This document shows positions 1 to 33,527 of a stretch of DNA of 33,527 nt, piece after piece (positions within the stretch are counted from its first letter, which is position 1; each line of letters opens with the position of its first letter). The translations under genes and the position numbers were made by a program. The notes beneath the pieces were generated by a model. It was not told the DNA's origin. It saw nothing but the letters and a program-made list of their open reading frames with translations, and searched no databases. The stretch is taken from positions 1 to 33,527 of the IMG/VR virus record IMGVR_UViG_3300046004_001823; one strand, given 5' to 3'. Source of the DNA: a virus.

Positions 1-127
1 GCCATCGAAGAGACCCTGTTTCGGATGACGCTGTGACGGGAGTCACCATGCGCGCCAAGGCGCACGGATTCGGGGACGAAATACGCCAAAAGGCTCACGG
101 GTCCTCCCTAGGGGGGAGCCCGACGTG
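1..127. repeat. Terminal direct repeat, copy 1 (circular-overlap signature)
   Basis: Bases 1-127 are identical to bases 33401-33527. A perfect 127-base overlap is the usual product of assembling a circular or circularly permuted molecule with a k-mer of 127, so I read the window as one genome of about 33,400 bp opened arbitrarily. Bases 1-36 are the last 36 bases of the tail-completion gene at 32675-33436, including its stop, so no separate gene should be called there. A true short direct terminal repeat is less likely because the repeat begins in the middle of a gene. Confidence 0.9.
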
Positions 128-691: not shown

Positions 692-2625
692 CCCACGCTC
701 TCGGACGCGAGGCGCTCAACCGCGTCACCCGCGAACGGTTCCGCCGGCACTGTCGGCCCCTGCCCCGGCTGACGATGAGCCAGTGGGCCGAGAAGTACCG
801 GGTGCTGAGTCCCGAGGCGACGGCGAACCACGGGCCGTGGCTCAACACGATGGTGCCGTACCTGCCTGAGATCATGGACGCCGTGAGCGACCGGACCACG
901 CAGGAGATCGTCGTGGTCTCACCATCACAAGCAGCGAAGACGGAACTGATCCTCAATGCGATCGGCTACTTCACGCACCAAGAGCCGAGCCCGATGCTCT
1001 GCGTGCAGCCGACCGTCGAGACCGCGGAGTCGTTCAGCAAGGACCGCGTGGCGCCGATGATCCGCGACTGCGGGGCGCTGTCGGCCTTGGTTGCCCCGGC
1101 TCGCTCGAGGGAGAGCAACAATACCATCCTGAGCAAAGCGTACCCCGGCGGGCAGCTCGATATGACCGGCGCCAACGCGCCGTCGGGTCTGGCCATGCGC
1201 CCGAAGCGGGTGGTGCTGCTCGACGAACGGGACCGGCACCCGAGGAGCGCCGGGACGGAGGGCGACGTGAAAGCGATCGCTCGCGCCCGCACGCGATCGT
1301 TTCAGCGGCGCCGCAAGATCGTGGAAGTGTCGAGCCCCACCTCGCAGGAGGAGTCGCTGATCTGGCCGAGCTACCTCGAAGGGACACAAGAGGTCTACGA
1401 GGTGCCATGTTCGGACTGCGGGCACTTCCAGACGCTGCACTTCGACCGGCTCAAGTGGGGCGTGGACACGGCGGGCAAGGTGATCGCGTCGTCCGTCGCG
1501 TACCAGTGCGCGGCGTGCGAGCATTTGATGCCGGCGCGTGAGAAGGGCGCGCTCTTGCGGGCGGGCCGGTGGACGCCGACCGCCGAGCCGCGGGTGCCGC
1601 ACAAGCGGTCGTTCCACATCCACGGGCTCGTGGCGGCGTTCGCCTTGTGGGAGGAAGTGGCGCAAGAGTTCGTGACCGCAAACGGGCAACGCGATCTTGC
1701 GATGCGGGCCGAGATGCTGCGCGCGTTCTTCAACACGACGCTCGGCGAGTTGTGGAAAGACCAGACGGCCGAGACGGTGAAGTCGACGTTGCTGGCGCGA
1801 TCCACCCGGTACGACAGCACGGACGACGCGGCCCCGATCACTTGGCATATCCCGCGCGACGCCGCGATCCTGACGGCTGGCCTCGACTTGCAGCACGACC
1901 GCGGGGAGCTCGTGGTGCGGGCGTGGGGCGTGGGCGAGACGTCGTGGCTGATCGAGCGGGCCATCTTGCGCGGCGACACCAGCCAGCCCGAGTGGTGGGC
2001 GCGGCTCGAGGACTACCGCACGCAACGCCGCTGGACGCACGAGAGCGGCACGCTGCTGGCGATCCGCTCGCTCACCATCGACGCCGGCGACGGCACGCAC
2101 AGCAAGCAGGTGTACACGTACTGCGCGCCGCGCTTGGCCCAGCACGTCTACGCCATCAAGGGCTCGAGCAACCCCGTGGCGCCGATGGTGCCGTCGAAGC
2201 CGACCAAGGTCAAGCCGGGGCGCCTGTATATCCTCGGCGTCCACGCGATCATGGACCGACTGTACCGTCGCTTGGCGATGGACGAGCCGGGGCCCGGCTA
2301 CCTGCACCTGAACCAGCACGCGGACGAGGACTACGTCACGCAGCTGCTGTCGATGCGGCGGCGGGTCGACGAGCGGACCCGCAAGCGGAAGTGGGAAGCG
2401 ACGCCTGGCGTCCGCAACGAAGTGGCCGACTGTGAGACGTATGCCTACGCCGCACTGCTGCTCGGCCCCGTGCCCGTGATGTCGCTCGCGTCGGAGGTGG
2501 ACCGCGTGAACGCCGAGGGCACCCGACAGACGCCCGTCGCCCCGACCACCGAGAAGCCGACCCCGTCACCGGCGAAGCCGTCCGGCAGTTGGCTGCCGCG
2601 TCGGCCAGGCGGGTGGATGCGATGA
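688..2625 (+). CDS. Terminase large subunit (gpA-like ATPase/nuclease)
   Basis: A 645-aa motor that cuts concatemeric DNA and pumps it into the prohead through the portal. The N-terminal ATPase has a divergent Walker A (SPSQAAKTE, residues 78-86) and a Walker B ending in LLDERD (177-182). Two CxxC pairs (C241/C244 and C274/C277) look like a zinc ribbon. The C-terminal RNase H-fold nuclease carries acidic residues near D400 (LDLQHD), D465 (TIDAGD) and D581 (VADCETYAY). The length fits the lambda gpA family (641 aa). The same frame is open upstream to 184, but that part is Arg/Gly-rich shadow of the small subunit; ATG 688 overlaps the upstream stop as ATGA. Confidence 0.93.
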   Translation: MTHALGREALNRVTRERFRRHCRPLPRLTMSQWAEKYRVLSPEATANHGPWLNTMVPYLPEIMDAVSDRTTQEIVVVSPSQAAKTELILNAIGYFTHQEPSPMLCVQPTVETAESFSKDRVAPMIRDCGALSALVAPARSRESNNTILSKAYPGGQLDMTGANAPSGLAMRPKRVVLLDERDRHPRSAGTEGDVKAIARARTRSFQRRRKIVEVSSPTSQEESLIWPSYLEGTQEVYEVPCSDCGHFQTLHFDRLKWGVDTAGKVIASSVAYQCAACEHLMPAREKGALLRAGRWTPTAEPRVPHKRSFHIHGLVAAFALWEEVAQEFVTANGQRDLAMRAEMLRAFFNTTLGELWKDQTAETVKSTLLARSTRYDSTDDAAPITWHIPRDAAILTAGLDLQHDRGELVVRAWGVGETSWLIERAILRGDTSQPEWWARLEDYRTQRRWTHESGTLLAIRSLTIDAGDGTHSKQVYTYCAPRLAQHVYAIKGSSNPVAPMVPSKPTKVKPGRLYILGVHAIMDRLYRRLAMDEPGPGYLHLNQHADEDYVTQLLSMRRRVDERTRKRKWEATPGVRNEVADCETYAYAALLLGPVPVMSLASEVDRVNAEGTRQTPVAPTTEKPTPSPAKPSGSWLPRRPGGWMR

Positions 2626-2669
2626 CCGCGGAGACCGAAGCCCGCCCCTCACCCCGTGGAGCGCCATGA
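2622..2669 (+). CDS. 15-codon bridging mini-ORF
   Basis: ATG 2622 overlaps the large-terminase stop as ATGA, and its own stop overlaps the next start (ATG 2666) again as ATGA. The peptide is MTAETEARPSPRGAP. No function is implied for the peptide. It could carry terminating ribosomes to the next gene, or be the scar of a deleted gene that once had ATGA joints at both ends. Confidence 0.3.
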   Translation: MTAETEARPSPRGAP

Positions 2670-2947
2670 CCTACTGCCTCGCCGTCGAACAAGCGCTGGA
2701 TGATGTGTCGCTGCCCCCCGCCGCCCGCCTCACCATGTGGCACGTCCGCAAGCGGCTGACCATGCAGGCCTACACGGAGGTGAAAGCGGAATCGCTGGCG
2801 AATGAAATGCGCGTCCTCGACACCACGGTGGGCAAGATGCTGACGCTGTTGGTGGACCGCGGATACTTGGAGGAATCGGGCAAGCGAAAGCCGCGGGCGT
2901 TCCGGTTGCCGTGGTCGCGGCGAGAGGGAAATGAGCGAGCGGCCTAG
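2666..2947 (+). CDS. Small winged-helix DNA-binding-like protein
   Basis: A 93-aa protein whose fold reads as a winged helix. Residues about 35-75 (KAESLANEMRVLDTTVGKML, then a helix and LVDRGYLEESG) match the helix-turn-helix plus wing of replication or regulatory wHTH proteins, and the tail is basic. It sits between terminase and the head-tail connector, an unusual place for a regulator, so it could act in packaging or late control. No named family is claimed. The start at ATG 2666 is joined to the mini-ORF stop. An untranslated gap of about 70 bases follows it. Confidence 0.6.
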   Translation: MTYCLAVEQALDDVSLPPAARLTMWHVRKRLTMQAYTEVKAESLANEMRVLDTTVGKMLTLLVDRGYLEESGKRKPRAFRLPWSRREGNERAA

Positions 2948-2955
2948 CAAACCCC

Positions 2956-2990
2956 TCCGTTGGACCGTAGTGGGGCCGCTGCCCCGTAGG
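2956..2990 (+). promoter_or_regulatory. Promoter-like element, copy A
   Basis: TCCGTTGGACCGT (2956-2968), nine variable bases, then GCTGCCCCGTAGG (2978-2990). A second copy with identical spacing and one mismatch lies at 17579-17613. Both copies occupy short gaps just ahead of a block of co-directional genes: here the connector/portal/capsid/tail block, there the lysis block. GGACCG and CGTAGG are 17 bases apart in both copies, a spacing typical of -35/-10 pairs. The sigma factor or activator is unknown. The GGGGC/GCCCC hairpin possible here is absent from copy B, so a terminator is less likely. Confidence 0.55.
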
Positions 2991-3021
2991 ATGGCGGGGC
3001 GAGCGCGACGACTATGCCAGT

Positions 3022-3555
3022 GTGACCACGACGCTGACGGCCATCCCGGACACACTTACCGCAGGCGATTCCCTGTCGGTGACGCTGTCGCTGTCTGAAT
3101 ATCCCGCGACGGCCGGATGGGTGGTGTCGTGCGCGCTGGCGGGACCGACCGTCCTCACGGCCACGGCCACGGCGAGCGGCGACCAGCACGTGCTCGCACT
3201 CACGAGCGTGCAGACGACGTGGCTCACGCCGGCGCTGTACCAGTGGCGGCTCCGCGCCACTCTGGGCCTCGTCGTCGAGACCTTCGACCGCGGCACACTG
3301 CTCGTGGCGCCCGACCTCGGCGCCGCCGCGGCCGGCGATCTCTCCAGCTATCCCGAGCGGATGCTGGCCATCTGCCGCACCGCACGCGAGAGCATCCTGG
3401 CGGGCGAGATGAAGATGTTCCAGATCGGCGGGCGCCAGGTGCAGATGCACACGTTGGCCGACGTGCAACGCGAAGAAGCACACTGGCGCCGTGAGCTCGC
3501 CCGCGAGCGGCGCGGCAGCGCGTTCGGCAAGGTCTCCGTCGGGTTCACGTCGTGA
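3022..3555 (+). CDS. Ig-like domain fused to gpW-like head-tail joining protein
   Basis: A 177-aa protein with two parts. Residues about 1-100 look like an all-beta, Ig-like domain (LTAGDSLSVTLSLSEYPATA, then strands ending TLLVAP). Residues about 115-170 (ARESILAGEMKMFQIGGRQ, then helix DVQREEAHWRRELARER) match the fold and spacing of lambda gpW, which plugs the portal and prepares the head for the tail. Lambda gpW alone is 68 aa. The gene order terminase, gpW, portal is also lambda-like. GTG 3022 starts right after a four-codon mini-frame at 3014-3025, and the stop overlaps the portal start as GTGA. Confidence 0.65.
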   Translation: MTTTLTAIPDTLTAGDSLSVTLSLSEYPATAGWVVSCALAGPTVLTATATASGDQHVLALTSVQTTWLTPALYQWRLRATLGLVVETFDRGTLLVAPDLGAAAAGDLSSYPERMLAICRTARESILAGEMKMFQIGGRQVQMHTLADVQREEAHWRRELARERRGSAFGKVSVGFTS

Positions 3556-5033
3556 CGACGGCCCCGCTCCCGCTCCGCTTGTGGCGTGCGGTGACTGGCG
3601 CGTTCCGTGCCACGCCGACGGCGACGCGCAGCTATCAGGCGGCGGGCGCGCATCGCCTCCTCTCCGACTGGCCCGGCACGGCGCAGAGCGCCGACAAGTC
3701 GACGCGCTACCAGGCGAAGGTGCTGCGCTTTCGCGCCCGCGAGCTGCGCGAGAACAGCCCGATCGTGGCACGGTACGCCGCGCTGGTGCGCGACAACGTC
3801 ATCGGGCCGGACGGCATCACGCTGCAAGCGATCGTCCCGTCGACCAGTGGCCGCAATACGACGGCGAGCGAGGCCATCGAAGCCGCGTGGTACCAGTGGG
3901 CCGCGTCCTGCACGCCGGATGGGCGGTCGTGGGTGGAGGTCTGCGGCATTGTCGCGGAATCGTGGAAGGTCGAGGGCGAGGCGTTGCTCGAGCTGATCCC
4001 GTCGAAGCTCGCGCCGGCGGGGCTCTGGGTGCAGCCGCTCGACCCCGACCTGCTGGACGAGATGGAGAACACCGATCGTACGCCGCAGGGCGGCAGCATC
4101 GTGCAGGGCGTGGAGTACGACGCGACCGGCCGCATCGTCGGGTACCATCTGCTGACGCGGCACCCGTCGGACAGCGGCGGCCGCACGCAGCGTCGCTTCC
4201 TTTCCGCCGCCCGCCTGCTCGTGCTCGGCCATCGCCAGCGGCCGCAGCAGTCGCGTGGTGTCACCGCCCTCGCGCCGGTGATGCTGCTGCTGCAACACTT
4301 GGAGAAGACGGACGAAGCGATCGTCGTGCTCAACCGCGTCACGGCGAGCAAGATGGGCGCGCTGATCCCCGGCGCCGACGCGCAGCCGCTCGAGACTGAC
4401 GGCGTGCCGCCGCAGATCGAGCAGGCGCCAGGTGAGTGGTGGACGCTGCCGCAGGGGTGGGACGTCAAGATGCTCGACCCGGGTCAGCCGACGCAGGAGT
4501 ACGACGTCTTCGCGCGCCACTTGCTGCGCAAGATCGCGTCGGGGCTCCACGTCGCCTACGCCTCACTGACGGGCGACCTGTCCGACGTGAACTACTCGTC
4601 GATGCGCGCGGGCCTGCTCGTGGAGCGCGATGCGTGGCAGGGCGCGCAGGCGCAGTTCATTCAGACGATCGTGGCGCCCGTGTTCCGGCTCTGGCTCGAC
4701 ACGGCGCCGATGACGCAAGCCTTCCCGATGGTGGCCGGCCAGAACGCCGCCACGATCGCCGAGGCGTCGGTGTGGCACCCGCGGCGGTGGCCGTGGGTGG
4801 ACCCGCTCAAAGACGCCAACGCGATCGACGTGCTCCTGAGCCTTGGGCTCACGACGCGCACCCGCGAAGCCAACAAGCAGGGGCTCTCGTTCGCCGCGCT
4901 GGTCGATGAGCGCGCCGCCGAAGAGGCCTATCTCCTCGCCAAGGGCGTCACGCTCGGGGCCGTGCCTGCGCCCGTCCCCGATCCGGCCGACGCGCCGGCG
5001 GTGCCGGTGCGCCAACTGAGGGCCGTATCATGA
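3552..5033 (+). CDS. Portal protein (lambda gpB family)
   Basis: A 493-aa protein that would form the dodecameric portal ring at one capsid vertex, dock terminase and later join the tail connector. The N-terminal part has the family pattern of LRFRARELRENSPIVARYA followed by RDNVIGPDGI. The core has the LDPDLLDEM region and the PAPVMLLLQHLEKTDEA-type clip/stem helices. Near residues 340-365 the conserved stretch SGLHVAYASLTGDLSDVNYS with SSMRAGLL is typical of lambda-type portals. Length is close to gpB (533 aa). GTG 3552 overlaps the upstream stop, and the downstream start overlaps as ATGA. Confidence 0.92.
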   Translation: MTTAPLPLRLWRAVTGAFRATPTATRSYQAAGAHRLLSDWPGTAQSADKSTRYQAKVLRFRARELRENSPIVARYAALVRDNVIGPDGITLQAIVPSTSGRNTTASEAIEAAWYQWAASCTPDGRSWVEVCGIVAESWKVEGEALLELIPSKLAPAGLWVQPLDPDLLDEMENTDRTPQGGSIVQGVEYDATGRIVGYHLLTRHPSDSGGRTQRRFLSAARLLVLGHRQRPQQSRGVTALAPVMLLLQHLEKTDEAIVVLNRVTASKMGALIPGADAQPLETDGVPPQIEQAPGEWWTLPQGWDVKMLDPGQPTQEYDVFARHLLRKIASGLHVAYASLTGDLSDVNYSSMRAGLLVERDAWQGAQAQFIQTIVAPVFRLWLDTAPMTQAFPMVAGQNAATIAEASVWHPRRWPWVDPLKDANAIDVLLSLGLTTRTREANKQGLSFAALVDERAAEEAYLLAKGVTLGAVPAPVPDPADAPAVPVRQLRAVS

Positions 5034-25690: not shown

Positions 25691-25983
25691 GTGAGATCCT
25701 GATCTCGGCCGCCGTGCTCGCCCTGCTGGGATGGCTCTGCGTGCGGCAGTACCGCGCGGAGCTCGAGGACGAGCAGCGCGCCGCGGCCTACCTGACCGCG
25801 GCAACCCGACGGCACGAGGCCTTCTTCGCGCGCATGGACAGCGCCACGACCGACGGCGAGACCTGCGACCTCTGCGGGTCCGTCTCGCGTGTCCGCGAGA
25901 TGGTCGACCTCGCCGACGACGTGGTGCTGCTGTGCCTTGGCTGCGCCCCCATGCTGCGTCGGCGCGCGCAGGAGGCCGCATGA
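25687..25983 (+). CDS. Membrane-anchored zinc-ribbon protein
   Basis: A 98-aa protein with one N-terminal membrane segment (ILISAAVLALLGWLCV, about 4-19) and a charged linker helix (RQYRAELEDEQRAAAYLTAA). A four-Cys zinc ribbon follows: C60/C63 (CDLC) and C83/C86 (CLGC). The ribbon would face the cytoplasm if the N-terminus is outside. I know no family with this exact combination. It stands between the RecT-like gene and excisionase, so an early-phase role at the membrane is possible. ATGA overlaps join it on both sides. Confidence 0.6.
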   Translation: MSEILISAAVLALLGWLCVRQYRAELEDEQRAAAYLTAATRRHEAFFARMDSATTDGETCDLCGSVSRVREMVDLADDVVLLCLGCAPMLRRRAQEAA

Positions 25984-26177
25984 CGAACACCGAGCAGCGG
26001 TTGCTCCGGACGCAGGAGGTCGCGGCACTGCTGAGAGTGCATCGCTGCACGCTGTACAGTGTGCCCGGGCTGATGGAGTGCCGCGTCGACATTGGCGGGC
26101 GGGGCGTGCGATATGATGCGAAGAAGGTGGACGCGCTGTTGACGCCCAAGGCGTCGAAAGCGAGGAAGGCGGCCTGA
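25980..26177 (+). CDS. Excisionase-like HTH protein
   Basis: A 65-aa protein with a MerR/HTH_17-type helix-turn-helix (LLRTQEVAALLRVHRCTLYS), a short wing (CRVDIGGRGVRYD) and a basic end (LTPKASKARKAA). Proteins of this size directly before an integrase gene are usually excisionases (Xis), which bend attP/attR DNA and direct excision. The stop shares a base with the integrase start (TGATG), so the pair is probably translated together. A GGAGG ribosome site (25971-25975) precedes ATG 25980. Confidence 0.75.
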   Translation: MTNTEQRLLRTQEVAALLRVHRCTLYSVPGLMECRVDIGGRGVRYDAKKVDALLTPKASKARKAA

Positions 26178-27298
26178 TGTATCGCAAAGCGAACGGCAAG
26201 ACGTTCTACACCCGCGTGACGTCCTCGACGGGCGAGCGGCGCGTGTGCTCGACCGGCACGACGCTCCGGGCGACGGCGAAGCACATGGAGGACTGGGTGT
26301 CCGCGCTGCGTGGGCGCCACGACATGCACGGCGTCCTGGATGCCGTCGTCGCCAAGCGGATCGACTTGGCCGAGGCCTACCGCCTGGGCGAAGCGGGCAG
26401 CCGTGACCTGTTGGACGCGAAGGCCGTCGCCGACGCCGACCTCGATCTCGCGCCGTTGCTCGCGCAGTGGGCCGCGCAGCGCGAAGGCAAGCGGCGCGGG
26501 GCGATCTCCACGCCGAAGTACGTCAAGCAGATTGGGGTGCTGTTCCCCGAGGTCCCGTGGCGTCGGTCCACCCTGACCGCGCCAACGGTCGCGCAACGCC
26601 TGGACGCGTTGGCCGTGAGCGATCCCACGCGCAACCGCTATCGGGCGGCGCTGTCGGCGTTCTGCACGTGGCTCGTGCGTCGGGGCGATCTCGCGCAGAA
26701 TCCGGCGCGACAGGCCGGGGGCTACGCCGAACCCGAGCAGCCCATCGTGTTCTATGGCATGGTGGACGCCAAGCGGCTGGTGCTGGCGCTGCCGGCGGAG
26801 TGGCGTGGACGCGAAGCCTTGATGGCAGGCACGGGCGCCGACTGGTCAGACACGGAACGGCTGACCGTGCGGGACATCGACCTGACGGCGCGCACGGTGC
26901 GCCTGCACGGCTCGAAAACGCCGTGGCGGAACCGACTGGTGCGGATCACGCAGCCGTGGGTGCTCCCGATCCTGAAGGCGGCGATTGCCGGCAAGCTCCC
27001 CGACGCGCCGGCGTTTCAGGGGATCGAGCCGCGGGCGCTGGCGGCCCATAAGGCAGCGGCCACGGCCTGCAAGCTGGAGAAGACGACCCTGCACCAGTGG
27101 CGGCACACGTACGCCGTCGCCGAGCTGCGGGCGGGTGAGAAAGCGACCGTCGTGGCCTACCAGCTCGGGCACCGCGACGCCTCGCTGGTCTGGAAACGCT
27201 ACGGGCGATACGTGCCCGAGGCGATCGACTACCGATCCAATAGTGAAGCGGACTCTGCTACCGATTTGGCTACCACTCAATTCAGGAAAAACGCGTGA
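26177..27298 (+). CDS. int: Tyrosine recombinase integrase with altered Arg I position
   Basis: A 373-aa integrase that would recombine attP with the host attB. Residues about 1-30 are an arm-binding strand region (YRKANGKTFYTRVTSSTGER). A core-binding domain occupies about 85-180 (NRYRAALSAFCTWLVRRGDL). The catalytic domain follows with K247 (GSKTPWRNR), H306-x-x-R309 (HQWRHTYA), H332 (LGHRD) and a nucleophile candidate Y342 (KRYGRY). At the place of the first catalytic Arg, normally TGxRxxE, it reads TGADWSD with Asp222. Either the active site differs from the norm or the protein belongs to a divergent group. AttP begins 16 bases after its stop. Confidence 0.85.
   Translation: MYRKANGKTFYTRVTSSTGERRVCSTGTTLRATAKHMEDWVSALRGRHDMHGVLDAVVAKRIDLAEAYRLGEAGSRDLLDAKAVADADLDLAPLLAQWAAQREGKRRGAISTPKYVKQIGVLFPEVPWRRSTLTAPTVAQRLDALAVSDPTRNRYRAALSAFCTWLVRRGDLAQNPARQAGGYAEPEQPIVFYGMVDAKRLVLALPAEWRGREALMAGTGADWSDTERLTVRDIDLTARTVRLHGSKTPWRNRLVRITQPWVLPILKAAIAGKLPDAPAFQGIEPRALAAHKAAATACKLEKTTLHQWRHTYAVAELRAGEKATVVAYQLGHRDASLVWKRYGRYVPEAIDYRSNSEADSATDLATTQFRKNA
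27257..27274 (+). repeat. Arm-type 18-bp direct repeat, left copy
   Basis: GCTACCGATTTGGCTACC lies inside the 3' end of the integrase gene, about 40 bases left of the tRNA-derived core, and recurs exactly at 27466-27483 on the other side. Each copy contains GCTACC twice, 12 bases apart. Paired repeats flanking a core are typical of integrase arm-binding sites. Confidence 0.7.
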
Positions 27299-27313: not shown

Positions 27314-27367
27314 GTGCCCAGACCGGGGGTCGAACCCGGAAACCCTTGCGAGTGGGGGATTTTGAGT
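27314..27367 (-). other. attP: attP core: 3' half of tRNA-Leu(CAA)
   Basis: Read on the - strand this gives the anticodon loop CTCAAAA (anticodon CAA), the 3' anticodon strand TCCCC, a class II variable arm (ACTC, GCAA, GGGT), a perfect T arm (CCGGG TTCGACC CCCGG), the acceptor strand TCTGGGC and discriminator A. The 5' half of a tRNA is absent: the sequence before the loop does not form the anticodon or D stems. This is the pattern of an attP whose integration rebuilds the 3' end of a host tRNA gene. It lies 16 bases after the integrase stop. It is not a working tRNA gene. Confidence 0.88.
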
Positions 27368-27423
27368 CGGAACAGGCCCATTTGCAGCATAACGACTTAC
27401 CCCCGTTTCACTCTAGGGGGGTG

Positions 27424-27483
27424 TTGCAGATTGTTGCCGGTTGTGGCCGAAAGTTGCGGGTTGTGGCTACCGATTTGGCTACC
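27424..27483 (+). repeat. Phased repeats and right arm-type repeat of attP
   Basis: GGTTGTGGC occurs at 27439-27447 and 27459-27467, 20 bases apart, among several TTG steps spaced near 10 bases (27424, 27434, 27441, 27454, 27461). The 18-base repeat GCTACCGATTTGGCTACC closes the array at 27466-27483, matching 27257-27274. Helically phased sites next to attP fit binding by integrase, Xis or a host bending protein. ACCCCC (27399-27404) and GGGGGGT (27416-27422) also form an inverted repeat just before it. No gene is seen in 27299-27518. Confidence 0.6.
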
Positions 27484-27994: not shown

Positions 27995-28035
27995 GCGCAT
28001 CTAACGACACCACCAAGGCGGAGGTGGCCTCATGA
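27991..28035 (+). CDS. 14-codon bridging mini-ORF
   Basis: MSASNDTTKAEVAS, with ATGA overlaps at both ends (27991-27994 and 28032-28035) and a strong GAGGAGG ribosome site ahead. It looks either like a translational bridge or like what is left after precise loss of a gene between two ATGA joints. GGAGG inside it (28020-28024) also serves as the ribosome site of the next gene. Confidence 0.35.
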   Translation: MSASNDTTKAEVAS

Positions 28036-28283
28036 AAAACCGGCTCACCGACCTAAATGACCTGCTGTTCGCTCAGCTCGAGCGCATCGCCGACGAGGAC
28101 CTCTCGACCGAGCAGCTGACGCAGGAGATTCAGCGGGCGACGGCCGTGGTGCAGATCGCCGATCGCATCGTCGACACGGCGACGCTCCAGCTGCAAGGGG
28201 CGCGCTTGATCGCCGAGCATGGCGGCGGGATGCTCAAGGCATTGCCGCCCACGATGGTGCTGTCGAGCGGGGTGGTGGCATGA
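28032..28283 (+). CDS. Conserved-type phage helical protein next to HNH gene
   Basis: An 83-aa all-helical protein (RLTDLNDLLFAQLERIADED, LSTEQLTQEIQRATAVVQIA, DRIVDTATLQLQGARLIAEH). Small proteins with this LNDxLFAQLERLxDE start are frequent in lambdoid phages and prophages directly before an HNH endonuclease gene, as here. Their function is unknown to me. The ATGA overlap with the HNH gene suggests co-translation and perhaps a complex. Confidence 0.65.
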   Translation: MKNRLTDLNDLLFAQLERIADEDLSTEQLTQEIQRATAVVQIADRIVDTATLQLQGARLIAEHGGGMLKALPPTMVLSSGVVA

Positions 28284-29893: not shown

Positions 29894-30141
29894 GCATCAC
29901 CACGAACGGCGAGCTGCGCACCGCGATCCAACAGGCCGAGATGTGCGCGGCCCGCCTGACGATGCGCGGGCATCACCTCACCATCGGAGAGCGCGCCGTG
30001 GTGGCTGGCCTTCTCAAGGACTTGGCCGGCGTCGCGCGGCGCGCGTTTGACCCGACGGCACGGATCGACATGGCGGCCGAGCCGCGTGAGCCCCGCCAAG
30101 ACGACACGGCGCCCATGCTGTTCGACGAAGGGGTGGCGTGA
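29890..30141 (+). CDS. Hypothetical protein, 83 aa
   Basis: Helical in the first 50 residues (ELRTAIQQAEMCAARLTMRG, LTIGERAVVAGLLKDLAGVA), then an acidic tail ending APMLFDEGVA. Short hydrophobic C-terminal motifs of this kind (MLFDE) can bind a partner such as a sliding clamp or replication protein, which would suit its place before the helicase gene, but this is only a guess. No family is recognised. Confidence 0.5.
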   Translation: MSITTNGELRTAIQQAEMCAARLTMRGHHLTIGERAVVAGLLKDLAGVARRAFDPTARIDMAAEPREPRQDDTAPMLFDEGVA

Positions 30142-31280
30142 TGCGCCCCGCACTTCTCTGCCGCTTTTGCCATAACCTCGTCGACCTGCCCCAGCGCGGG
30201 TGGGTCGACGGAGACCCCGCATACTGCGTCGCTCACCATGCCCTTGCCGACCGCGACCCGTGGGTCATCGGTCAAGGGGCGCTCGACTACGCCGAATGGC
30301 TGCACGACATGGAGTCGTCGTCGCTCATTCGCTGGCCATGGAAGGCGATGAACGACTTCGCAGGGCCACTCGTGCCGGGGAGGCTGACGTACATCGCCGC
30401 CTTCCCTGGCAACGGAAAGACCAGTTTCGCCGCCCACCTGCTTCAGCACTTCTTACGAGTGCAGGGCAAGAAGGTCACATACCTGCCGCTCGAGGCCGAT
30501 CCGGGCGAGACGTTTACCCGCCTGGCGTGCCTCGACTGCGGGATCAGTGCCGACGACGCGCTCTCCAAGCGTCTGCGAGATCGGGCCGATGCCGGCGACG
30601 CGACGGCGAAGGCTCAGCACGAGGACCTGAGCGTGGCCTATCGGCTCATGCGCGAGGATCGGCAGCTGCTGGAGAGCCTGCGGATCGAGCCGATCGACGC
30701 GTTGACGCCCAAGAGCTTCGCGCGGGCGCTGCACGTCGCGCACCTGCAAGAGTCGGACATCGTGATCGTGGACCACATGGACCACGCGGAGAACGATGTG
30801 GGAGAGTCGGGGCCGGAGATCGCGCTGTCGAACCAGATGCAGTCGATGGCGCTGCGGGCGGCCAAGGCCATGAACATCCCCATGATCCTGCTCACCCAGC
30901 TCAACAGCAGCCGCACCGGCGGCGATGCCCTCGCCCACTACCGGCGGCCCTTGGTCGACTGGCTCTACAACAAAGGCAAGAAGGAGCAGATGGCGGCCAA
31001 CATCTTCGGGCTCTCACGGGTGCTCGACCCCAACGCGGCCTCGGACGCACTGCAAGACGTGCGGGCAGGCCGGCGCGATGTGTCCACGATTGTGCTGCCG
31101 GACGTGATGGAAGTCTCCGGCATGAAAATGCGATACGGCGGGGCGTCCCGCGACAAGTCGATCAAACTGAGGTACCTGCGGGGGCATATCATGGATATGG
31201 CAGACGACGACGGCCGCGACGTGTTCGCGAGCCAGCACGGGATCGCGATGGGCTCGCCGTCGAATTGGAGGGTCGCCTAG
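30141..31280 (+). CDS. DnaB-like replicative helicase/ATPase with zinc-finger start
   Basis: A 379-aa RecA-fold ATPase likely to unwind DNA at the phage origin or to load the host helicase. It has Walker A PGNGKTS (89-95), the DnaB-like lead-in GRLTYIAAF, and Walker B DIVIVDH (about D211). A DnaB-type arginine/sensor region includes PMILLTQLNSSR and LSRVLD. The first 33 residues hold a Cys/His cluster (C7, C10, C29, H32), perhaps a zinc finger replacing the usual DnaB N-terminal domain. No primase gene is present. GTG 30138 is an alternative start; ATG 30141 has better spacing from AAGGGG. The stop shares a base with GTG 31280. Confidence 0.8.
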   Translation: MRPALLCRFCHNLVDLPQRGWVDGDPAYCVAHHALADRDPWVIGQGALDYAEWLHDMESSSLIRWPWKAMNDFAGPLVPGRLTYIAAFPGNGKTSFAAHLLQHFLRVQGKKVTYLPLEADPGETFTRLACLDCGISADDALSKRLRDRADAGDATAKAQHEDLSVAYRLMREDRQLLESLRIEPIDALTPKSFARALHVAHLQESDIVIVDHMDHAENDVGESGPEIALSNQMQSMALRAAKAMNIPMILLTQLNSSRTGGDALAHYRRPLVDWLYNKGKKEQMAANIFGLSRVLDPNAASDALQDVRAGRRDVSTIVLPDVMEVSGMKMRYGGASRDKSIKLRYLRGHIMDMADDDGRDVFASQHGIAMGSPSNWRVA

Positions 31281-32137
31281 TGGCGCGCATCAGGACGATT
31301 AAGCCGGAGTTCTGGCAGGACGAGAAGCTGACCCCGCTGTCCGACGTAGATCGGCTGCTGTTCCTGTTTCTCGTGTCCAGCGCCGACGATTGCGGGCGGG
31401 TGCTGGACAAGCCGGTCAAGATCGAGGCCGACATGTTCGACGGGGAGACTGATCGCCGTCAGGATGTGTGCACAGGCCTCGCGAATCTCTCGCGAATTGG
31501 TCGGATTCGGCGCGGAAAAACGTCCTCGGGCCAGCGCATCATCGAGATCGTGAATTGGGGCAAGCACCAGAAGGTCGATCACCCAAATACGAAGTCTGCC
31601 TTCCCAGAAATCGTTGAAACGTATGAAGATACGGACATTCGCGAGGCATTCGCGAATGATTCGCGAGGCATTCGCGAGGCATTCGCGCACCATACCAACG
31701 ACCTACGACCAGTACCAACGACCAGTACCAACGACCAACAGGTGCACCACGCGAAACGGCGGCGTGGTGCGCCCCGATCGCTCGACGTGGAGGCCAAGTA
31801 CCCCCATTTTTCGCCCACCGACCGCACCGCCTGCCTCGACGCCTGGCGAGGCAAGATCGGCGACGTCAACGTCGGCCAGCTCATCAGCGTCCTCGGTCCG
31901 TCCTTTCGGACCATCGACGACCCGTACTACGTGACCCACCCGGCTCTCGTCATGGCGGTCCGGGACTACTGCGGGATCGTCACGAAGGGCCGGTCGGCGC
32001 CGTGGGCCTCGCCGGCCGACCTCGGCAAGCGGCTGGCCGCCCTCGCGAAGAACGCCACCGACCACCGCGACGACCCGCTGGCACGGTTGGACGGGGCGCT
32101 CATGATCGTCCACGGCTCGACCAAGGTGGCCGCATGA
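31280..32137 (+). CDS. Replisome organizer / replication initiator
   Basis: A 285-aa protein with the hallmark start MARIRTIKPEFWQDEKLTPL and DRLLFLFLVSSADDCGRVL, common to phage replication initiators with a winged-helix DNA-binding domain. VDHPNTKSAFPE ends the DNA-binding part near residue 112. A linker coded by tandem DNA repeats (IREAFA units) follows, then a C-terminal domain (SLDVEAKYPHFSPTDRTACL, to LAALAKNA) that likely contacts the helicase. As with lambda O, the origin seems to lie inside the gene. GTG 31280 overlaps the preceding TAG. Upstream frame extension is shadow. Confidence 0.8.
   Translation: MARIRTIKPEFWQDEKLTPLSDVDRLLFLFLVSSADDCGRVLDKPVKIEADMFDGETDRRQDVCTGLANLSRIGRIRRGKTSSGQRIIEIVNWGKHQKVDHPNTKSAFPEIVETYEDTDIREAFANDSRGIREAFAHHTNDLRPVPTTSTNDQQVHHAKRRRGAPRSLDVEAKYPHFSPTDRTACLDAWRGKIGDVNVGQLISVLGPSFRTIDDPYYVTHPALVMAVRDYCGIVTKGRSAPWASPADLGKRLAALAKNATDHRDDPLARLDGALMIVHGSTKVAA
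31637..31691 (+). repeat. Iterons: five 11-bp tandem repeats (probable origin)
   Basis: Units at 31637, 31648, 31659, 31670 and 31681, each 11 bases, begin ATTCGCG. Three are exactly ATTCGCGAGGC; the others end AATG and CACC. Two related units with the same 11-base period (TCGCGAATCTC and TCGCGAATTGG) occur at 31479-31500. The stretch 31590-31640 just upstream is AT-richer and could open. Iterons inside the initiator gene are the layout of lambda-type origins. Confidence 0.8.
31692..31738 (+). repeat. 13-bp repeats downstream of iterons
   Basis: ACCAGTACCAACG occurs twice in tandem (31708-31720 and 31721-31733), flanked by partial copies (ATACCAACG at 31692 and ACCAACA at 31734). They adjoin the five iterons and code the Thr/Pro/Asn-rich linker. 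They may be a second protein-binding set of the origin or simply slippage in a linker. Confidence 0.65.
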
Positions 32138-32678: not shown

Positions 32679-33436
32679 ATCTGAGCATCCGCACCGAAGG
32701 CGTGGCCGAGGTCAAGCAGGCCATGGCCGCACTGGGCCGCAACGCACCCAAGGCTGTCACCCTGTGGGTCAACTGGGTCGGCCTGACCGCTCAGGGGGAG
32801 ATGCGCGAACGCCTGCCCTCGAGCTTCTCTATGCGTGGCACGCAAGAGCAGTTCAAGAAGGCCGTGGTGTTCCAATCGGCCTCGACCTCGGGCAAGCGCG
32901 AGAAGCAGGCCATCCTCGTCATCGGGAGCGATGGCCCAGGTGGGACCAAAGCCAGCGCGACCAAGAACTTCGGGCGCATCCTCGCACGGCACGAGGAAGG
33001 GGAGACCCGCACCGAGCGGAACCAAGCGTACCGCCTCGGCAGCGGTAAGGTCATCACGTCCGGCTTCTTCCTGCCGGCCAAAGGATTGCGGACGCCCACG
33101 ACAAATGTGCCGCGCTCTATGTATCCAACCAGTGTTGGCGCACAGATCCGCAGCGACCCGAGCGGCAAGGTGTTCTTCGCCAGTGGCACGAAGAAAGGGA
33201 GCAAGAAGCAAGGCGCGGGCGTCAGCTACTTCGCGACCGACAAGGGCATCTTCCGTCGTCGCCATTCCAGCTTCGGCGGTCGCGTCGATGTGGAAGCAAT
33301 CTGGTGGTTCCGGTACACGGTGCGCACGCCTGCCCGAACGAAGCTGTGGGAGACCGCCCAGCGCGTGTGGGACACCAAGGCCGTCGCGCTCGGCCAGCAG
33401 GCCATCGAAGAGACCCTGTTTCGGATGACGCTGTGA
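32675..33436 (+). CDS. Tail completion / minor tail protein Z-like
   Basis: A 253-aa protein with the look of gpZ-type tail completion proteins. The start is IRTEGVAEVKQAMAALGRNA with a long helix to TAQGEMRERLPSSFSMRGTQ. A middle with Lys/Arg-rich strands follows (TSGFFLPAKGLRTPTTNVPR; GVSYFATDKGIFRRRHSSFG), then a closing helix (LWETAQRVWDTKAVALGQQA). Such proteins seal the upper tail. In lambda the gene lies after the head-tail joiners, whereas here it precedes terminase on the circle. GTG 32675 follows GGGGGG (32662-32667). The longer open frame upstream is out of context. The last 36 bases are repeated at 1-36. Confidence 0.6.
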   Translation: MNLSIRTEGVAEVKQAMAALGRNAPKAVTLWVNWVGLTAQGEMRERLPSSFSMRGTQEQFKKAVVFQSASTSGKREKQAILVIGSDGPGGTKASATKNFGRILARHEEGETRTERNQAYRLGSGKVITSGFFLPAKGLRTPTTNVPRSMYPTSVGAQIRSDPSGKVFFASGTKKGSKKQGAGVSYFATDKGIFRRRHSSFGGRVDVEAIWWFRYTVRTPARTKLWETAQRVWDTKAVALGQQAIEETLFRMTL

Positions 33437-33527
33437 CGGGAGTCACCATGCGCGCCAAGGCGCACGGATTCGGGGACGAAATACGCCAAAAGGCTCACGG
33501 GTCCTCCCTAGGGGGGAGCCCGACGTG
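33401..33527. repeat. Terminal direct repeat, copy 2
   Basis: This is the second copy of the 127-base end repeat. It starts inside the tail-completion gene, 36 bases before the end of its stop codon, and runs into the region ahead of the small terminase. Joining base 33400 to base 1 restores an uninterrupted order from RusA through the tail-completion protein to terminase. Confidence 0.9.

What the first reader, a model, noticed from the sequence alone, without database searches (positions are those of the whole stretch)
27314..27367. attP carries the 3' half of tRNA-Leu(CAA)
On the - strand the anticodon loop, variable arm, T arm and acceptor strand are intact, and the similarity stops within the 5' anticodon strand. 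Integration should restore the host tRNA gene. The fragment is also a direct clue to the host.
Basis: partly seen in the sequence, partly recalled or inferred. Interest (0 to 1): 0.75.

Follow-up and report, generated by a model that had tools for sequence, protein, structure and literature searches.

The report
Phage attachment site with half tRNA-Leu
This circular phage genome carries the last 54 bases of a Gemmatimonadota tRNA-leucine gene beside its integrase, so it can insert into that gene without breaking it; this is a textbook arrangement that names the host, but the integrase belongs to a group that lacks a normally near-invariant catalytic arginine.

Summary
Confirmed, one base off. 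Window 27315-27368 (- strand) is identical over 54 bases to the 3' part of intact tRNA-Leu(CAA) genes in three Gemmatimonadaceae MAGs. In relatives the match keeps these ends and falls from 100 to about 81%. It starts two bases before the anticodon loop and ends at the discriminator base. Joining host 5' half to phage 3' half in silico gives an intact tRNA-Leu(CAA); attR has none. The window has 127-bp terminal repeats, so it is a circular genome and this is attP. An 18-bp direct repeat flanks the core at 97 and 39 bp. The same layout occurs in phage ctjLE16 (integrase 71% identical, own tRNA-Leu(CAA) half) and in a 42.8-kb prophage of a 4.64-Mb Gemmatimonadota contig bounded by tRNA-Leu(TAA) and its 3' half. 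No prophage was found at tRNA-Leu(CAA) of the three best hosts. The att site is ordinary (anticodon-loop class). Less ordinary: this integrase and 23 of 24 relatives with readable box I have Asp/Glu where tyrosine recombinases have catalytic Arg I, yet such relatives mark precise tRNA insertions.

The parts
27315..27368 (-). attP core: 3' part of tRNA-Leu(CAA), from 2 bases before the anticodon loop to the discriminator base
   Evidence: 54/54 identical to tRNA-Leu(CAA) of L002, L003, L004; sharp ends in relatives
27360..27366 (-). anticodon loop CTCAAAA, inferred 7-bp strand-exchange (overlap) region
   Evidence: phage/host identity begins at or just before this loop here and in the mapped elements G022, G226, G029, G042; cut positions inferred
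27257..27274 (+). P' arm-type site, GCTACCGATTTGGCTACC (two GCTACC 12 bp apart), overlaps the end of int
   Evidence: exact 18-bp repeat, only two sites in the window, chance expectation 0.02; same site in ctjLE16 and, with another sequence, in G022
27466..27483 (+). P arm-type site, second copy of GCTACCGATTTGGCTACC
27391..27414 (-). conserved P-arm element AGAGTGAAACGGGGGTAAGTCGTT, function unknown (possible accessory-protein site)
   Evidence: matches AGAGTGAAGCGGGCCTAAGTCGTT at the same place in the attR of the G022 prophage; not seen in ctjLE16
26177..27298 (+). tyrosine integrase, 373 aa, convergent with the tRNA half, stop codon 16 bp from the core; Asp222 in place of catalytic Arg I
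   Evidence: PF00589, phrog_1; AlphaFold model matches lambda Int, XerA, IntI4, HP1 Int; box I alignments
25731..26177 (+). possible excisionase directly upstream of int (weak match)
   Evidence: phrog_66 excisionase and transcriptional regulator, E 1.9e-4
1..127 (+). terminal direct repeat, copy 1 (circular assembly)
   Evidence: exact 127-base match of both ends
33401..33527 (+). terminal direct repeat, copy 2

Best explanation
The feature is the attP site of a temperate tailed phage of Gemmatimonadaceae. The phage carries the 3' part of the host tRNA-Leu(CAA) gene. Its tyrosine integrase (inferred) binds the two direct 18-bp arm sites and the anticodon stem-loop core, and exchanges strands within the anticodon loop of the host gene. 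After integration the host 5' half joins the phage 3' half, giving a complete tRNA gene at the int end (attL), while the original 3' half is displaced to the far end (attR). Shown here: the identity, its ends, the restored gene in silico, the arm repeats, and the same outcome in a mapped prophage with a 52%-identical integrase. Inferred: strand-exchange position, arm binding, and activity of this particular integrase.
For: 54/54 identity to tRNA-Leu(CAA) of three Gemmatimonadaceae MAGs, sharp ends and a graded decline in relatives; in-silico attL gives intact tRNA-Leu(CAA), attR none; circular genome with terminase, portal, capsid and integrase genes; integrase relatives: 22 of the 24 Gemmatimonadota loci with a nearby tRNA are convergent with it, 12 of them tRNA-Leu; 42.8-kb prophage in single-contig G022 with complete tRNA-Leu(TAA) at the int end, displaced 3' half at the other end, and arm repeats at similar distances; ctjLE16 with a 71% integrase, its own tRNA-Leu(CAA) half and a near-identical arm site.
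Against: No integrated copy of this phage was found; the three best hosts have an uninterrupted site (tRNA-Leu followed by tRNA-Asn) and no portal homologue (an empty answer without a positive control). The integrase lacks Arg I, so its activity is inferred from relatives. Only one genome per species was searched.
Confidence: 0.95

Rival explanations
1. The fragment is a decayed phage tRNA gene or a chance pick-up unrelated to integration.
For: The 5' half is missing and ARAGORN sees no tRNA.
Against: Exact identity with sharp ends, integrase next to it, flanking arm repeats, and the same layout at mapped prophage ends. A decayed gene would not be 100% identical over exactly the 3' part.
Confidence: 0.02
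2. The record is an integrated prophage or chromosomal island with the tRNA half as attR, not a free circular genome with attP.
For: The displaced half of an integrated element looks the same in sequence.
Against: Exact 127-bp terminal repeats indicate a circular molecule; arm sites lie on both sides of the single core; no complete tRNA is present.
Confidence: 0.02
3. The phage now integrates elsewhere, for example at a different tRNA-Leu isoacceptor, and the CAA half is a relic of an earlier host.
For: Relatives of the integrase use tRNA-Leu(TAA), (TAG) and tRNA-Met, so target switching happens.
Against: Identity to the CAA gene is perfect over 54 bases including anticodon, variable arm and acceptor strand; a relic would have drifted. 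ctjLE16, the closest relative, also carries a CAA half.
Confidence: 0.03

Closest known systems
tRNA-gene integration sites, anticodon-loop class (site A in Islander, PMC4383910)
   Same: Tyrosine integrase; attP carries a 3' tDNA fragment; exchange at the anticodon loop; target restored, fragment displaced. Islander counts 2083 islands of site A and 3760 with 3' fragments.
   Different: Nothing in the core itself; the host phylum is poorly covered and the integrase clade is unusual.
Caudoviricetes sp. ctjLE16 (MW202627.1, Manatee Spring)
   Same: Integrase 71% identical, own tRNA-Leu(CAA) 3' half, P' site identical and P site nearly identical.
   Different: Different variable arm, T stem and core flank; its tRNA half matches none of 395 Gemmatimonadota genomes with up to 2 mismatches.
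Prophage in G022 (single contig, 4.64 Mb), about 2130770-2173569
   Same: Integrase 52% identical, same orientation and arm layout, conserved P-arm element, homologous helicase region.
   Different: Targets tRNA-Leu(TAA); arm-site sequence differs; most structural genes show no match.
IntCTnDOT and IntDes tyrosine recombinase subgroups (PMC8138268)
   Same: Precedents for tyrosine recombinases without Arg I at its usual place; in CTnDOT integrase another, downstream arginine substitutes.
   Different: Here the position is Asp/Glu across the clade, and the clade is in Gemmatimonadota phages and islands, a phylum the paper's text does not mention. Which residue compensates here is unknown.

Membership tests
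attP in a tRNA gene, anticodon-loop class | attP contains a terminal fragment of a host tRNA gene | tested here: met
   54/54 identity
attP in a tRNA gene, anticodon-loop class | fragment begins at the anticodon loop | tested here: met
   identity starts 2 bases before the loop
attP in a tRNA gene, anticodon-loop class | integration restores the tRNA and displaces a fragment | tested here: met
   in silico for this phage; observed in G022 and smaller elements of relatives
attP in a tRNA gene, anticodon-loop class | recombination at the site shown by experiment | not testable with these tools
   needs assay or junction reads
lambda-type attP | arm-type sites on both sides of the core | tested here: met
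   exact 18-bp direct repeats, also in ctjLE16, G022 and G029; binding itself not tested
tyrosine recombinase (R-K-H-R-H pentad plus Tyr) | fold with arm-binding, core-binding and catalytic domains | tested here: met
   AlphaFold model, mean pLDDT 71, blocks 191-340 at 74-95; matches lambda Int, XerA, IntI4, HP1 Int; N-terminal part is low confidence
tyrosine recombinase (R-K-H-R-H pentad plus Tyr) | Lys, His-x-x-Arg, LGH and Tyr nucleophile | tested here: met
   K247, H306, R309, H332, Y342; K, R, H332 and Y invariant in 16 sequences
tyrosine recombinase (R-K-H-R-H pentad plus Tyr) | catalytic Arg I (TG-x-R) | tested here: not met
   Asp222 in the window; Asp/Glu in 23 of 24 relatives with readable box I, the exception being the weak hit L032

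The most novel reading that the evidence does not exclude
The integrase represents a clade of tRNA-targeting tyrosine recombinases, widespread in Gemmatimonadota, in which catalytic Arg I is replaced by Asp/Glu and its role is taken by another residue, for example the invariant Arg251 of a K-x3-R-x-R motif. That would be a further rearrangement of this active site besides IntCTnDOT and IntDes.
Probability: 0.45. Interest if true: 0.6.

Novelty: new variant of a known kind. Interest (0 to 1): 0.42.

Why it matters
The att site gives a strong host call for an uncultured phage: Gemmatimonadaceae, near three MAGs (one labelled Gemmatimonas phototrophica in its record title). It also predicts attB and both junctions exactly, so integration can be tested by PCR or read mapping. 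The integrase clade matters more widely: Arg I is part of the otherwise strictly preserved catalytic pentad, and filters that demand it (or rely on the Pfam model, which scores this protein just above its cut-off, 27.7 against 27.1 bits) would miss such integrases, although their relatives mark precise insertions. The two-arm att layout with a 12-bp repeat pitch gives a rule for finding such elements in the phylum.

Tried and rejected
Rfam and ARAGORN on the window gave nothing, as expected for a half tRNA. Exact core and arm-site scans of viral contigs gave nothing; records near the window may be left out there. A single-protein scan for the integrase in viral contigs gave nothing; alignments gave L065 and L069 plus two distant canonical integrases. 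Terminase search of the phylum failed twice on the server; the portal was used instead and found in 8 of 395 genomes at up to 48% identity. The portal is not found in the three best hosts. ctjLE16's tRNA half matched no genome of 395 with up to 2 mismatches. The short 25-40-base matches were not read as CRISPR spacers. Arm repeats were not found in the G226 element. Alignment A1 was too diverse for a viral scan. Williams 2002 (tRNA sublocations) is not held. The rival readings (decayed tRNA, integrated copy, relic target) were considered and rated low.

Full report
Observation. The - strand of the window reads GACTCAAAATCCCCCACTCGCAAGGGTTTCCGGGTTCGACCCCCGGTCTGGGCA at 27368..27315. A scan of one genome per species for 84,980 bacteria and archaea found the 52-base core exactly in three records, all Gemmatimonadota (L002, L003, L004). 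In each it lies in an ARAGORN tRNA-Leu(CAA) gene, followed 120-130 bases on by tRNA-Asn. All 54 bases are shared and identity stops abruptly on both sides. In 179 genomes of the same family only these three match with up to 3 mismatches, and all three match exactly. A blastn search of the right part of the window against 41 relatives gives matches that end exactly at 27315 and 27368 in most genomes, at 100, 93, 89, 87, 83 and 81% identity. This is both a precise boundary and a host gradient.

Is it attP? The window's ends share an exact 127-base repeat, so it is a circular assembly. It encodes terminase, portal, capsid and a tyrosine integrase. The integrase gene runs toward the tRNA half and stops 16 bases from it. 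A sequence GCTACCGATTTGGCTACC occurs exactly twice in the window, once on each side of the core (27257-27274, 27466-27483), with a chance expectation of 0.02 sites at up to 3 mismatches. Each is itself two GCTACC units 12 bp apart. These are best read as arm-type integrase sites; binding is inferred.

Does integration restore the gene? Joining host 5' part, core and phage int side gives an intact tRNA-Leu(CAA) for all three hosts; the other junction holds no tRNA-Leu.

Do relatives behave so? The integrase finds 29 of 395 Gemmatimonadota genomes at E <= 1e-10. Of the 30 loci fetched, 24 have a tRNA nearby and in 22 it is convergent with int: 12 Leu (TAA, CAA, TAG), 7 Met, 2 Gln, 1 Asn. In some, the int frame runs into or across the tRNA. 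L009 and L013 use tRNA-Leu(CAA). The best case is G022, a 4.64-Mb single contig: complete tRNA-Leu(TAA) at the int end (3' part at 2173569-2173522) and a 48-base exact copy of its 3' part at 2130817-2130770, 42.8 kb away. Both arms carry GGGTAGCAGTTTGGGTAGCAG. Arm-site distances from the core are 97 and 39 bp in the window, 99 and 31 in ctjLE16, 97 and 29 in G022, and 87 and 28 in a G029 element, with best 19-base matches of 17-19 against a shuffled maximum of 14-15. Smaller elements in G226 (6.8 kb), G029 (10.6 kb) and G042 (5.0 kb) also have a tRNA and a displaced 3' half. Phage ctjLE16 (MW202627.1) has a 71%-identical integrase, its own tRNA-Leu(CAA) half and the same arm site.

Integrase. 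Aligning the integrase with its relatives showed box I as TG-x-[D/E] where tyrosine recombinases have TG-x-R. phmmer aligns GADW with the SGLR of integron integrase IntI4, placing Asp222 at Arg I; alignment with two canonical, distant viral integrases (L066, L067) does the same. Of 24 relatives with readable box I, including viral L064, L065 and L069, 23 have Asp or Glu; the exception, L032, is a weak hit with canonical Arg and with its tRNA in the other orientation. Xer-like recombinases in the same genomes have Arg. Lys247, Arg309, His332 and Tyr342 are invariant in 16 sequences, as are Arg251 and Arg253. The model is of moderate quality (mean pLDDT 71, ten-residue blocks 191-340 at 74-95) and matches XerA, Tn1549 Int, IntI4, lambda Int and HP1 Int. 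Because relatives of this clade bound precise insertions, the clade is likely active. Precedents exist: Smyshlyaev et al. 2021 (PMC8138268) report that Arg I is absent in some IntCTnDOT members, with another arginine substituting, and shifted in IntDes. Arg251 as the substitute here is a guess.

Known context. Islander (PMC4383910) lists anticodon-loop sites (A, 2083 islands) and 3' fragments (3760) as common. The core is therefore a new example of a well-known arrangement. What departs from the known is the Arg-I-less integrase clade, and it is that, not the att site, for which I chose 'new variant of a known kind'. The library held almost nothing on Gemmatimonadota temperate phages, though that is a limited open-access search.

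Host. The evidence (exact tRNA, graded decline, integrase and helicase relatives in G022, a 77% DNA match in G409, portal at 48% in G221) consistently points to Gemmatimonadaceae. Species is not settled.

Noticed in passing
26177-27298 (integrase), L005-L023, L029, L031, L064, L065, L069: Catalytic Arg I of the tyrosine recombinase is replaced by Asp/Glu across the clade; an invariant K-x3-R-x-R motif follows.
   Followed up: partly
L057 2167 and 7202 (G042): The tRNA-Leu(TAG) copy at the int end and the displaced copy differ by two changes that swap one T-stem base pair (GCCGG/CCGGC against CCCGG/CCGGG), as if the element's half tRNA kept pairing by compensation.
   Followed up: no
L052 1982, 12610, 17005 (G029 contig 34): Three successive tRNA-Leu(TAA) 3' parts, suggesting tandem integration of elements at one tRNA gene.
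   Followed up: no
L067, downstream of the integrase at 2578-3690 (- strand listing): A distant viral integrase with canonical Arg I also lies beside a tRNA-Leu(CAA)-like 3' half, so this target is used by more than one integrase lineage.
   Followed up: no
28032-28283: 83-aa protein matching phrog_2044, labelled RNA polymerase beta subunit (E 5e-24); the label looks doubtful for so short a protein.
   Followed up: no
27419-27458: Three imperfect repeats at 10-bp spacing (GTTGTGGCC type) between the core and the P arm site, possibly for an accessory DNA-bending or excision protein.
   Followed up: no
30138-32137: Overlapping frames with a DnaB-like helicase (30138-31280) and a replication-initiation match (within 30200-32137); 31278-31730 is 78% identical in DNA to the G022 prophage.
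   Followed up: no
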